From positions 1-64,000 of the forward strand of contig NZ_JABTEX010000004.1 of NCBI RefSeq assembly GCF_015711645.1: DNA of 64,000 nucleotides. Direction: 5' to 3'. Below, piece after piece: positions 37,370-53,380 of the stretch. The notes below the pieces were generated by a model. The model searched no databases. It had not been told where the DNA came from and saw nothing but the letters and a program-made list of their open reading frames with translations. Positions within the stretch are counted from its first letter, which is position 1; every line of letters starts with the position of its first letter. The translations under genes were made by a program, and so were the position numbers. Origin of the DNA: Planomonospora sp. ID82291. Its GTDB lineage: Bacteria; Actinomycetota; Actinomycetes; Streptosporangiales; Streptosporangiaceae.

Positions 37370-37407
37370 AGCCGTGCCGTACGGCCGGCGACCCGTGAGA
37401 CAGAGCA

Positions 37408-37534
37408 GCGTGCTCCGGGGTCGGTGAAAGTCCGAACCGGCGGTTACAGTCCGCGACCCGGTCGAAGCCATCGACCGGTTGACCCGGTGGAATTCCGGGA
37501 CCGACGGTTAAAGTCCGGATGGGAGGAAGCGCGC
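37408..37534 (+). promoter_or_regulatory. FMN riboswitch (RFN element)
   Basis: The conserved RFN blocks appear in order: GCTCCGGGGTCGGTGAAAGT, CCGAACCGGCGGTTACAGTC, a variable hairpin, GACCCGGTGGAATTCCGG, GACCGACGGTTAAAGTCCGG, ATGGGAGGAAGC. The closing helix pairs GCGTGC (37408-37413) with GCGCGC (37529-37534). It would sense FMN and turn down the riboflavin genes. The 22-bp perfect palindrome at 37566-37587 and a CCCTCCGC stretch able to pair with part of the ribE ribosome-binding site suggest a translational or mixed expression platform. Confidence 0.97.
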
Positions 37535-37565
37535 GAGCGGACAGTGCCGTCGAGGCACCCTCCGC

Positions 37566-50718: not shown

Positions 50719-51759
50719 ATGCGTATCGGTATGGCCCTGAACTACTCGGGGGGCTTCAAGGAGACGGTGGCCGAGCTGGCCGACTACGAGAAGGCCGGTC
50801 TCGACATCGTCTTCGTCGCCGAGGCCTACAGCTTCGACGCGGTCAGCCAGATGGGCTACATCGCGGCCAGGACCGAGCGGCTGCAGATCGCCTCGGGCAT
50901 CCTGCCCGTCTACTCGCGGACGCCGACCCTGCTGGCGATGACCGCCGCGGGCATGGACTACGTCTCCGACGGCCGCTTCACCCTCGGGCTGGGCGCCTCC
51001 GGACCGCAGGTCATCGAGGGCTTCCACGGCGTGCCGTACACCGCGCCGCTCGGCCGGACCCGCGAGGTCATCGAGATCTGCCGCCAGGTCTGGCGCCGCG
51101 AGCGCGTCGAGCACCAGGGCAGGCACTACACGATCCCGCTCCCCGCCGACCAGGGCACCGGCCTGGGCAAGCCCCTCAAGCTCATCAACCACCCGGTCCG
51201 CGAGCGCATCCCCGTCGTGATCGCCGCCATCGGCCCCAAGAACGTCGAGCTCGCCGCCGAGATCGCCGAGGGCTGGGAGCCGATCTTCTACATGCCGGAG
51301 AAGGCCGCCGACGTCTGGGGGCCCTCGATCGCGGCGGGCAAGGCCAAGCGCGCCCCCGAGCTCGGCGAGCTGGACGTCATCGCCCAGGCGAGCCTCGCCA
51401 TCGGCGAGGACGTCGCGGGCTGGCTGGAGCTCGGCCGCCCGATGGCCGCCCTCTACATCGGCGGCATGGGCGCCAAGGGCAAGAACTTCTACAACGACCT
51501 CGCCCGCCGCTACGGCTACGAGAAGGAGGCCGAGCAGATCCAGGAGCTGTACCTGTCCGGCAAGAAGGACGAGGCCGCCGCCCTCGTCCCGCAGGAGCTG
51601 CTGGAGTCGATGTCGCTGATCGGCTCGGAGGGCTTCGTCCGCGACCGGCTCCAGGCGATGCGGGAGTCCGGCGTGACGACGATCAACGTCACCCCGCTCG
51701 GCCGCACGCACGACGAGCGCATCCGGCTCATCGAGAAGGTCAAGGAGCTCGCCTCCTGA
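50719..51759 (+). CDS. LLM-class F420-dependent oxidoreductase
   Basis: 346 residues of the luciferase-like monooxygenase (bacterial luciferase) TIM-barrel group: GLDIVFVAEAYSFDAVSQMGYIA, LGLGASGPQVIEGFHGVPY, IPVVIAAIGPKNVELAAEIAEGW are typical of the F420-using actinobacterial branch. Substrate unknown. ATG 50719 with GGAAGGA 10 bases before; in-frame GTG 50698 is possible. A strong terminator follows. With the F420-NADP reductase-like gene at 34.3 kb it implies an F420-producing host. Confidence 0.86.
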   Translation: MRIGMALNYSGGFKETVAELADYEKAGLDIVFVAEAYSFDAVSQMGYIAARTERLQIASGILPVYSRTPTLLAMTAAGMDYVSDGRFTLGLGASGPQVIEGFHGVPYTAPLGRTREVIEICRQVWRRERVEHQGRHYTIPLPADQGTGLGKPLKLINHPVRERIPVVIAAIGPKNVELAAEIAEGWEPIFYMPEKAADVWGPSIAAGKAKRAPELGELDVIAQASLAIGEDVAGWLELGRPMAALYIGGMGAKGKNFYNDLARRYGYEKEAEQIQELYLSGKKDEAAALVPQELLESMSLIGSEGFVRDRLQAMRESGVTTINVTPLGRTHDERIRLIEKVKELAS

Positions 51760-51760
51760 C

Positions 51761-51808
51761 GGAGCGTCCCGGGGTCCCGGCCGCGACCGGGACCCCGCTC
51801 CCGTCTTT
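51761..51808 (+). terminator. Terminator after the LLM gene
   Basis: CGGGGTCCCGG (51770-51780) pairs perfectly with CCGGGACCCCG (51787-51797) around a 6-base loop, with outer GGAG/CTCC pairing and a TCTTT stretch just after. It begins one base after the stop codon. Confidence 0.85.
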
Positions 51809-51882
51809 CGACGGACTCCGCACGACGGGGGTCCGGACCCTTCCGGGGACCCCTGTGACCTATGTCACCTGACATGGGAGGA

Positions 51883-51999
51883 ATGTCCCCGTGGCCGGGG
51901 ATGTTCCCACCCTCCGTGAGGTTCTCCCTGACGTCCGTGCGGCTGGTCGAGCGGCTCCACGTCGACCTGTGCCGCCTCAACGGCGATCTCTGTCGCTAG
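51883..51999 (+). CDS. Cys-containing leader peptide before the symporter
   Basis: A small frame ending ...VRLVERLHVDLCRLNGDLCR and stop. Actinobacteria carry a group of short 'putative leader peptides' with a conserved His-Val-Asp-Leu-x-Arg block and Cys near the end, found before sulfur and cysteine genes, where ribosome stalling on Cys codons can control the downstream gene. This sequence has HVDLCR and a second LCR at the end. The start is uncertain: in-frame ATGs at 51862, 51874, 51883 and 51901 give 45 to 32 residues, and GGGAGG lies just before 51883. It begins after the LLM terminator and ends 76 bp before the symporter. Confidence 0.7.
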   Translation: MSPWPGMFPPSVRFSLTSVRLVERLHVDLCRLNGDLCR

Positions 52000-52075
52000 A
52001 ACGCGCCTTCGAGTCCTTTTCCTCACCCGCATGACCGTGTCCGCTCCGGCATGCCCTTTCTCGGAAGTCACGTTC

Positions 52076-53380
52076 GTGAAGAGATTCTCCTTCTCCCTGC
52101 AGCTCCTGCTGGGTCTCGTCGTCGGCGTCGCCCTGGGCCTGGTCGCCCGCGCCGGCGAGGTCGCCTGGCTCGCCACCACGCTGACCCAGGTCGGCTCGAT
52201 CTTCGTCCAGCTCCTCAAACTCGCCGTCCCGCCGCTGGTCTTCACCGCCGTCGTGGTCAGCGTGGCCAACCTGCGCAACGTCAGCGGCGCCGCCCGGCTC
52301 GCGGGCAGGACGCTCGGCTGGTTCATGGTCACCTCGCTCGCCGCGGTGGCCGTCGCCATCGGCCTCGGCCTGCTGATCGACCCCGGCCGGGGCGTCACCG
52401 TCGCGCTCGACGGCGCCAAGGCCGTGGACCTCGAAGGCGCCGGAACCTGGACCGACTTCCTGACCGGCATCATCCCGACCAACATCGTCACCGCGTTCAC
52501 CGAGCTCAACGTCCTGCAGATCGTCTTCCTGGGGGTCGTCCTCGGCGCCGCGGCGATGGCGGCCGGGGAGAAGGCCGAGCCGTTCCTCGCCCTGAGCCGC
52601 TCGGTCCTGGAACTGGTCCAGAAGGCCCTGTGGTGGGTCATCCGGCTGGCCCCGATCGGCACCGCGGGCCTGATCGGCAAGTCCGTGGCCACCTACGGCT
52701 GGGACCTGCTGGCCCCGCTGGCCAAGCTCAGCGCGGGGGTGTACGCCGGCTGCCTCGTGGTCCTGCTGGTGATCTACCCGGCGCTCCTCGCCCTCGTCGG
52801 CAGGGTCAACCCGCTCACCTTCTACCGCAACGCCTGGCCCGCGATCGAACTGGCCTTCGTCTCCCGCTCCTCGGTCGGCACCATGCCGCTGACCCAGCGC
52901 GTCACCGTCGAGCGCCTCGGCGTCGACCGCGACTACGCCTCCTTCGCGGTGCCGTTCGGCGCCACCACGAAGATGGACGGCTGCGCCGCCGTCTACCCGG
53001 CGCTCGCCGCGATCTTCGTGGCCCAGGTCTTCGGCGTCCCGCTCGGGATCGGCGACTACCTGCTGATCGCGTTCGTCTCCGTGGTCGGCTCCGCCGCCAC
53101 CGCGGGCCTGACCGGCGCGATCGTGATGCTCACGCTGACCCTGAGCACGCTCGGCCTTCCGCTGGAGGGGGTCGGCCTGCTGCTGGCCATCGACCCGATC
53201 CTCGACATGATCCGCACCGCCACCAACGTCGCCGGCCAGATGGTCGTCCCGGTCCTAGTGGGCAGGTCGGAGGGGCGGCTGGACGAGGAGGTCCTGAACG
53301 CCCCGCCGCAGTCCCTGGAGGAGCCGCCCGCCGCGGCGCGCGGGAGCCGGGAGGCGACCCCCGAGCCCGCCCTGGCCTAG
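52076..53380 (+). CDS. DAACS-family symporter (dicarboxylate/amino acid or cystine)
   Basis: 434 residues with eight or so helices and re-entrant hairpins of the glutamate-transporter fold. HP1-like SRSSVGTMPLTQ, the unwound TM7-type GATTKMDGCAAVYPA and the HP2-like VGSAATAGLTGAIV with a final DPILDMIRTATNV are present. DAACS members carry glutamate, succinate, Ser/Thr or, in the TcyP branch, cystine. The Cys-containing leader peptide upstream argues for a sulfur amino-acid role. I choose GTG 52076 (KRFSFSLQ) with GGAAG 10 bases before; ATG 52031 would add fifteen poorly conserved residues. The last 40 residues are an Ala/Glu/Pro tail. Confidence 0.85.
   Translation: MKRFSFSLQLLLGLVVGVALGLVARAGEVAWLATTLTQVGSIFVQLLKLAVPPLVFTAVVVSVANLRNVSGAARLAGRTLGWFMVTSLAAVAVAIGLGLLIDPGRGVTVALDGAKAVDLEGAGTWTDFLTGIIPTNIVTAFTELNVLQIVFLGVVLGAAAMAAGEKAEPFLALSRSVLELVQKALWWVIRLAPIGTAGLIGKSVATYGWDLLAPLAKLSAGVYAGCLVVLLVIYPALLALVGRVNPLTFYRNAWPAIELAFVSRSSVGTMPLTQRVTVERLGVDRDYASFAVPFGATTKMDGCAAVYPALAAIFVAQVFGVPLGIGDYLLIAFVSVVGSAATAGLTGAIVMLTLTLSTLGLPLEGVGLLLAIDPILDMIRTATNVAGQMVVPVLVGRSEGRLDEEVLNAPPQSLEEPPAAARGSREATPEPALA

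What the first reader, a model, noticed from the sequence alone, without database searches (positions are those of the whole stretch)
51862..53380. Cys-containing leader peptide before a DAACS symporter: possible cysteine-responsive transporter control
A short frame, isolated behind a strong terminator, ends in RLHVDLCRLNGDLCR and stops 76 bp before the symporter start. The His-Val-Asp-Leu-x-Arg block with terminal Cys codons matches a class of actinobacterial leader peptides found before sulfur genes, where cysteine supply is sensed by translation. A DAACS transporter is an uncommon target and would fit cystine uptake (TcyP is of this family). Seen: frame, motif, spacing. Known: leader peptides and cysteine attenuation in actinobacteria. 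Inferred: the transporter's substrate and the mechanism.
Basis: partly seen in the sequence, partly recalled or inferred. Interest (0 to 1): 0.65.

Follow-up and report, generated by a model that had tools for sequence, protein, structure and literature searches.

The report
Cysteine leader peptide before amino-acid transporter
A short, evolutionarily conserved peptide that ends in a fixed cysteine codon sits in front of a possible cystine transporter gene, behind what looks like a thiol-stress promoter, so the bacterium probably makes more transporter when cysteine runs short or its thiols are oxidised.

Summary
The peptide frame lies upstream of 73 of 95 distinct symporter loci examined and of all 20 more distant homologues fetched. 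It resembles NCBIfam NF042934 "putative leader peptide" (25.1 bits, cut-off 27). Of four other such leaders in this genome three precede sulfur-type genes. Two corrections: the start is almost certainly GTG 51916 (27 codons), not ATG 51862; and in front lies GGAAT-N18/19-GTT, the SigR/SigH thiol-stress promoter type, at a fixed place in 51 of 57 loci, so the leader is probably leaderless. New: the Cys codon 11 codons after His is UGU in 71 of 73 symporter leaders, and in 60 of the 61 Cys there among 63 leaders from wider family scans, while the other conserved Cys is mostly UGC. The HVDLCR block is kept at the amino-acid level (pN/pS 0.17). Most likely, ribosomes slow at UGU when Cys-tRNA is short and the symporter is switched on. 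How stalling reaches the symporter is unresolved; cystine as substrate is plausible, not shown.

The parts
51761..51801 (+). GC-rich hairpin after the upstream LLM-type oxidoreductase gene (terminator-like, poor U-tract)
   Evidence: strand folding -35.1 kcal/mol; not called by the scanner; the gene's name is from reading its translation
51854..51869 (+). CRP-like palindrome TGTGA-N6-TCACC upstream of the promoter
   Evidence: GTGA-N6-TCAC at -59..-62 in 39 of 57 loci; the name CRP is a resemblance recalled from memory
51880..51884 (+). -35 GGAAT of a SigR/SigH-type promoter
   Evidence: GGAAT-N18/19-GTT at -36/-37 from the leader start in 51 of 57 loci; 0.001 per sequence in base-composition shuffles
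51903..51905 (+). -10 GTT of the same promoter (spacer 18)
51916..51999 (+). leader peptide ORF, 27 codons, GTG start (VRFSLTSVRLVERLHVDLCRLNGDLCR*), probably leaderless
   Evidence: the longer reading 51862-51999 matches NF042934 at 25.1 bits
51970..51972 (+). first Cys codon (H+4), TGC
   Evidence: of 73 symporter leaders: TGC 61, TGT 5, not Cys 7
51991..51993 (+). position-locked Cys codon (H+11), TGT; proposed stall codon
   Evidence: TGT in 71 of 73 symporter leaders and in 60 of 63 leaders from family scans (TGC 1, not Cys 2)
52000..52062 (+). C-rich, G-poor linker with CCTCAC (52021-52026) and small hairpin GCATG 52029-52033 / CATGC 52050-52054
52063..52067 (+). Shine-Dalgarno GGAAG of the symporter
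   Evidence: aligned
52076..53380 (+). DAACS (SDF, PF00375) symporter, GTG start, 434 aa; possible cystine importer
   Evidence: PF00375 E 9.1e-104 (on the frame from 52031); residue comparison with E. coli TcyP/GltP/DctA/SstT

Best explanation
The unit is a two-input control region for a DAACS amino-acid symporter. A SigR/SigH-type promoter (GGAAT-N18-GTT) starts a transcript at or within a couple of nucleotides of the GTG of a 27-codon leader peptide, so thiol-oxidative stress raises transcription. A ribosome translates the leader; when Cys-tRNA is scarce it slows or stalls at the wobble-read UGU codon 26, with the conserved R-L-H-V-D-L-C-R segment then in the upper exit tunnel, and this lets the downstream symporter be expressed, bringing in cystine or a related sulfur amino acid. 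Shown by comparison: leader frame and core under amino-acid selection, promoter motif at a fixed place, UGU locked. Inferred: start site, SigR dependence, stalling, direction of the response, link to expression, substrate.
For: Frame upstream of 73 of 95 distinct symporter loci (81 of 103 rows before 8 more repeats were removed) and of 20 of 20 homologues at 50-61% identity. pN/pS 0.166 over codons 12-20 with pS as high there (0.385) as elsewhere (0.36), i.e. amino-acid rather than RNA constraint. H+11 codon TGT in 71 of 73, against TGC 137: TGT 12 in 36 long GC3-rich frames of the window, with H+4 (TGC 61, TGT 5) as internal control. GGAAT-N18/19-GTT at -36/-37 in 51 of 57, and GGAA[C/G]-N18/19-GTT at -35 to -37 in 5 of 5 of the ~51% homologue class; a SigR/SigH-type sigma gene with an RsrA-type anti-sigma gene beside it in this genome. 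NF042934 similarity; sibling leaders in this genome before DUF4395/rhodanese, sulfite reductase and TauD-type genes. Precedent: leaderless short ORFs with Cys codons regulate downstream genes by cysteine supply in M. smegmatis (passage in PMC9031893; original paper not held). SigH consensus GGAAT-N18-19-GTT (passages in PMC10012870).
Against: No experiment. A model in which the stalled ribosome frees the symporter SD gained little support: 15 of 53 loci open by >0.5 kcal/mol against 6 for a control position; mean change 0.24 kcal/mol. No conserved intrinsic terminator was recognised; the four linker-hairpin pairs show only 5 double-change cells in 53 sequences. The C-rich linker is also seen in 13 orthologues without the leader (mean C-G 0.25 vs 0.29), and only 13 of 48 leader loci exceed the 95th percentile of other intergenic regions. 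22 of 95 loci lack the strict motif (8 of these have a looser form). In the 15 leaders of the ~58% homologue class GGAA is kept but GTT at the right place is not evident. 6 of 57 loci lack the promoter pattern. Two sigma genes pass the SigH_actino cut-off, so which one would act is open. GltP scores slightly above TcyP (165 vs 154 bits).
Confidence: 0.7

Rival explanations
1. Rho-dependent attenuation of the TnaC kind: a ribosome that finishes the leader exposes a C-rich rut-like linker and Rho ends transcription before the symporter; a ribosome held at UGU near the stop codon masks it. This is a rival for the last step only.
For: The first 60 nt after the leader stop have a C-G excess averaging 0.28; 53 of 57 loci exceed the 95th percentile of 60-mers of the window, flanking controls about 0.01. 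Rho was proposed, as a weak prediction, for cys operon leaders in mycobacteria (passages in PMC1262725).
Against: Against other intergenic regions the excess is modest (13 of 48 over the 95th percentile), and 13 orthologues without the leader have it too.
Confidence: 0.35
2. Translational attenuation by RNA refolding: a structure formed when the leader is free hides the symporter SD, and a stalled ribosome prevents it.
For: A passage of PMC13236596 describes stalling in a uORF that unmasks an SD and says that cysteine genes of M. smegmatis are regulated by translation attenuation; CCTCAC-like sequence, complementary to the leader start GTGAGG, is in 44 of 57 linkers against 13.6 expected, often about 21 nt after the stop.
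Against: Masking the stall site gives no consistent opening; the longest pairing of leader start to linker is no longer than in shuffles (5.91 vs 5.94); linker fold z -0.82 in the window.
Confidence: 0.3
3. The UGU codon senses tRNA-Cys modification (A37 thiomethylation, needing sulfur and Fe-S clusters) rather than charging alone.
For: Only one synonym is tolerated at H+11 although one tRNA is expected to read both codons (recalled, not checked); hypomodified tRNA relieving trp attenuation in enterobacteria is recalled from memory; a KorA-type oxidoreductase is another target.
Against: No direct evidence; the UGU lock could be simple slow wobble decoding.
Confidence: 0.12
4. The peptide is a small functional protein unrelated to control of the symporter, or a relic of common descent.
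For: Amino-acid-level selection is what a functional peptide would show.
Against: The same block before unrelated genes and a position-locked synonymous codon, which a free peptide would not need.
Confidence: 0.05

Closest known systems
NCBIfam NF042934 cis_reg_atten, 'putative leader peptide'
   Same: R-x-H-V-D-L-x-R block in a short ORF upstream of genes; E 9.7e-6; the family matches at E<=1e-4 in 99 of 148 genomes of the class, at E<=1e-3 in 5 of 60 drawn from the phylum
   Different: 25.1 bits, below the cut-off 27 (a leader 109 nt upstream of a 57% identical symporter in G012 scores 34.8); target is a DAACS symporter and the promoter motif is SigR-type
Cysteine-responsive leaderless polycysteine sORFs of M. 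smegmatis (Canestrari et al. 2020; not held, known from passages of citing papers); NCBIfam NF042933 Ms5788A family
   Same: probably leaderless short ORF with Cys codons upstream of the regulated gene
   Different: two separated Cys codons, no poly-Cys run; NF042933 match only 12.6 bits against cut-off 45
Candidate cys-operon leader peptides of Seliverstov et al. 2005 (PMC1262725, passages)
   Same: actinobacterial leader with Cys codons and no conserved terminator
   Different: there runs of Cys codons, before cys operons and cbs
uORFC-8-2 motif before cysS of Rhodobacterales (PMC8632094, passages)
   Same: short uORF with two conserved Cys codons, read as ribosome-mediated attenuation
   Different: other phylum, intrinsic terminator, tandem Cys codons, and UGC dominates, the opposite of the UGU lock here
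SigR/SigH regulons of thiol-oxidative stress (S. coelicolor, C. glutamicum)
   Same: GGAAT-N18/19-GTT promoter motif; SigR/SigH-type sigma and RsrA-type genes in this genome
   Different: here the motif is placed to start a leader peptide; dependence on the sigma factor untested
E. coli TcyP cystine/sulfocysteine symporter
   Same: DAACS family, 32% identity; shared GCAxxYPA insertion in TM7, shortened HP2 tip, Arg of TM8 kept
   Different: the tree did not group the window protein with TcyP; GltP scores slightly higher; D312 is kept in the window protein and lost in TcyP (GltPh numbering recalled)

Membership tests
NF042934 cis_reg_atten leader peptide | profile score at or above curated cut-off (27 bits) | tested here: not met
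   25.1 bits, 25.5 bits in the genome scan; a symporter leader in G012 reaches 34.8
NF042934 cis_reg_atten leader peptide | short ORF with HVDLxR block directly upstream of a gene, conserved among relatives | tested here: met
   73 of 95 distinct loci, 20 of 20 further homologues fetched
Cysteine-responsive attenuator (mycobacterial polycysteine sORFs) | contiguous Cys codons | tested here: not met
   two Cys codons seven codons apart
Cysteine-responsive attenuator (mycobacterial polycysteine sORFs) | expression of the downstream gene responds to cysteine | not testable with these tools
   needs a reporter or starvation experiment
Leaderless mRNA | transcription start at the leader start codon | tested here: inconclusive
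   promoter geometry predicts a start 0-2 nt before GTG (inference); no 5'-end data
SigR/SigH-dependent promoter | GGAAT-N18/19-GTT at a fixed place, conserved | tested here: met
   51 of 57 loci; consensus from passages of PMC10012870
SigR/SigH-dependent promoter | loss of transcription without the sigma factor | not testable with these tools
   candidate sigma and anti-sigma genes are present
TcyP-type cystine symporter | phylogenetic grouping with TcyP | tested here: inconclusive
   the four E. coli proteins group together, with long branches; two rows of that tree were apparently read in a wrong frame
TcyP-type cystine symporter | cystine transport | not testable with these tools
   needs an uptake assay
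TnaC-like Rho attenuation | rut-like C-rich region after the leader stop, Rho dependence | tested here: inconclusive
   C-rich linker, but not distinctive against intergenic controls

The most novel reading that the evidence does not exclude
The whole actinobacterial HVDL leader family is a nascent-chain-assisted sensor: the R-x-VDLxR segment, at a fixed distance in the exit tunnel, makes the ribosome sensitive to one position-locked, wobble-read UGU codon eleven codons after the His/Ala, so that even leaders with a single Cys respond to Cys-tRNA supply (or to its sulfur-dependent modification); before the DAACS symporter it is combined with a thiol-stress promoter as a two-input switch for cystine uptake.
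Probability: 0.35. Interest if true: 0.8.

Novelty: new variant of a known kind. Interest (0 to 1): 0.6.

Why it matters
It would tie cysteine sensing by a leader peptide to the thiol-stress sigma factor at one transporter gene, and it exposes a feature seen throughout the leaders sampled (one Cys codon almost always UGU, at fixed distance from the conserved block) that makes the unexplained amino-acid conservation of these leaders directly testable: a single synonymous change, UGU to UGC, separates a codon/tRNA role from a peptide role.

Tried and rejected
Intrinsic-terminator attenuation: the scanner found none in 51700-52200, and the U-tract after the linker hairpin varies between relatives (by eye). 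SD sequestration relieved by a stalled ribosome: no consistent effect. GTGAGG:CCTCAC pairing: motif enriched (44 of 57 vs 13.6) but pairing length not above shuffles. Rut site: strong against window background, weak against intergenic and no-leader controls (of the 22 no-motif loci 13 were used as control, the 8 with a looser frame and L073 were left out). TcyP grouping by tree: not supported (L139 and L149 were apparently in a wrong frame and L152 had a spurious N-terminus). Rfam: only an FMN riboswitch elsewhere in the window.

Rows dropped. One search matched 226 of 297 genomes, but only the 30 best loci were fetched; one search kept the best 80 of 579. Of these 110, 7 duplicates were dropped (103 left, 81 with the frame) and 8 further repeats (73 with the frame; no repeats among the 22 without it); the window itself is one of the 73. 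In one search minus-strand loci were read in the wrong orientation; corrected. The symporter-start pattern was too strict and was redone (57 of 73 passed, 16 set aside; alignment part) used 53 of these 57, the four longest linkers left out. The 20 more distant homologues are a hand-picked part of those listed. In one search, of 83 loci 5 scored too low (two of them, L171 and L174, show TGT at H+11), 15 repeated a peptide already counted and 63 remained: TGT 60, TGC 1 (L125, a CCCC run), no Cys 2 (L126, L165). A first pass found 26 of 29 and a stricter one 22 of 40, TGT in each of these. The scoring rewarded Cys at H+11 but is blind to its codon. Downstream genes of these 63 were examined only for L001-L004.

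Papers: the listings showed nothing on HVDL leaders before DAACS genes or on a UGU preference in such leaders (open-licence PMC only; titles, starts of abstracts, and passages of the few papers opened).

Full report
Observation. The frame 51862..51999 (+) and the C-terminal block RLHVDLCRLNGDLCR are there. It lies between an LLM-type oxidoreductase gene (name from reading the translation), followed by a strong hairpin with a poor U-tract (51761-51801, -35.1 kcal/mol; not called by the scanner), and a DAACS symporter (PF00375, E 9.1e-104). The leader stop is 76 nt before GTG 52076, the likely symporter start.

More than chance. NCBIfam NF042934 'putative leader peptide' matches with E 9.7e-6 and 25.1 bits, just under its cut-off of 27. 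In the whole genome five loci stand out (E 2.0e-6 to 1.5e-4) from the rest (0.8 and worse). The other four lie upstream of a DUF4395/rhodanese pair, a nitrite/sulfite reductase, a TauD-type dioxygenase and a KorA-type 2-oxoacid:ferredoxin oxidoreductase (names by reading the translations, not by a family scan).

Conservation. From 110 symporter loci (the best 30, the best 80) 7 duplicates were dropped; 81 of the 103 rows left have the H-[VILAF]-D-[LMVI] frame within 450 nt upstream. Eight further repeats among these leave 73 of 95 distinct loci, the window included. Of the 22 without it, 8 have a looser form such as PYIDLCR or YVDLRR; the rest include Kitasatospora, Micromonospora and Solirubrobacter loci. 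All 20 homologues at 50-61% identity that I fetched have a leader too, in other dresses (..VTNIWGLTRRRHIDLCRVASQAC.. or ..LVARLHVDLCRLASVLCRG).

Start and promoter. Conservation starts at a GTG/ATG 14 codons before the His (57 of 60 Streptosporangiaceae-type loci), i.e. GTG 51916; the frame before it contains a stop within 17 codons in 20 of 57. In front of this start, GGAAT-N18/19-GTT sits at -36/-37 in 51 of 57 loci; base-composition shuffles give 0.001 per sequence. The spacer letters are hardly conserved. This is the SigH consensus of C. glutamicum (PMC10012870, passages). The genome holds a SigR/SigH-type sigma gene (357 bits) with an RsrA-type anti-sigma gene next to it; a second sigma gene also passes the cut-off (305 bits). 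Geometry puts the transcript start 0-2 nt before GTG, so the leader is probably leaderless; this is inference. A CRP-like GTGA-N6-TCAC palindrome lies at -59..-62 in 39 of 57 loci. In the ~51% homologue class 5 of 5 have GGAA[C/G]-N18/19-GTT at -35 to -37; the 15 of the ~58% class keep GGAA at a similar place but show no GTT at the right distance (the latter by eye).

What is under selection. Over 55 leaders of 27 codons, pN/pS is 0.166 for codons 12-20 (x-R-L-H-V-D-L-C-R), 0.50 for codons 2-11 and 0.89 for codons 21-27, while pS is about the same throughout (0.36-0.385). So the block is kept as amino acids and not as RNA. Exceptions at the nucleotide level are codon 2 (AGG 53 of 55), codon 25 (CTC in 47 of 48 Leu) and codon 26 (TGT 55 of 55).

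UGU. At H+11 the codon is TGT in 71 of 73 distinct symporter leaders (one TGC; one, L072, has the TGT shifted by one codon), whereas H+4 is TGC 61, TGT 5, not Cys 7. It is TGT in the 20 more distant homologues as well. Among leaders from family scans of this genome and of genomes of the phylum and class (loci; downstream genes mostly not examined), 63 distinct ones of 83 loci were scored: TGT 60, TGC 1, not Cys 2 at H+11; H+4 TGC 29, TGT 2; H+9 TGC 17, TGT 7. Neighbouring codons vary. Thirty-six long GC3-rich frames of the window use TGC 137, TGT 12. Several leaders have this UGU as their only Cys. In an unrelated alphaproteobacterial Cys uORF UGC dominates (PMC8632094, passage). I found no mention of the UGU lock in the searches.

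Symporter. Identity to E. coli TcyP 32%, GltP 30%, SstT 27%, DctA 25%; phmmer bits GltP 165, TcyP 154, DctA 122, SstT 69. The GCAxxYPA insertion in TM7 and a shortened HP2 tip are shared with TcyP alone among the four, and the TM8 arginine is kept. The tree does not place it with TcyP. Cystine or a related sulfur amino acid is my best guess from regulation plus these features, about 55%.

From stall to expression. Three schemes were examined and none is established: SD opening by a stalled ribosome, pairing of the leader start with CCTCAC, and Rho via a C-rich linker. The linker hairpin GCATG/CATGC is kept in most loci (50 of 53 have G-C at the outer pair) with 5 double-change cells over four pairs, and seems absent in three short linkers (L072, L079, L084, by eye).

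Verdict. A real, translated-looking leader peptide of the actinobacterial Cys-leader kind in a combination I have not seen described: DAACS target plus thiol-stress promoter motif. The latter is the most interesting result, because it extends across the leaders sampled and is testable by one synonymous change.

Noticed in passing
L004 (G000:C7:1499636-1499689): Cys leader (..FGRLHVDLCRLAAGLCRGDRPRS*) upstream of a KorA-type 2-oxoacid:ferredoxin oxidoreductase gene, an unusual target for this leader class.
   Followed up: no
window 51854-51869: CRP-like TGTGA-N6-TCACC palindrome, kept as GTGA-N6-TCAC in 39 of 57 loci just upstream of the SigR-type promoter motif: a possible third input.
   Followed up: partly
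G372:C251:3248-3485 and G473:C520:3768-3939: Two leader matches lie on opposite strands, divergent and under 200 nt apart, in each of two genomes.
   Followed up: no
leaders at H+11 (L001-L004, L123-L132, L162-L230): Position-locked UGU codon across the NF042934-type leaders sampled.
   Followed up: yes
L056, L064, L066, L070, L077, L078, L081: Some Planotetraspora, Microtetraspora, Streptosporangium and Nonomuraea loci carry an extra hairpin (like GATCGCGCTC..GAGCGCTCGATC) right after the leader stop codon (by eye).
   Followed up: no
window 37406-37536: FMN riboswitch (RF00050, 98.1 bits).
   Followed up: no
L068 and L075: Nonomuraea jabiensis has two close symporter copies, one with an intact leader and one with a degenerate one (PYIDLCR).
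   Followed up: partly
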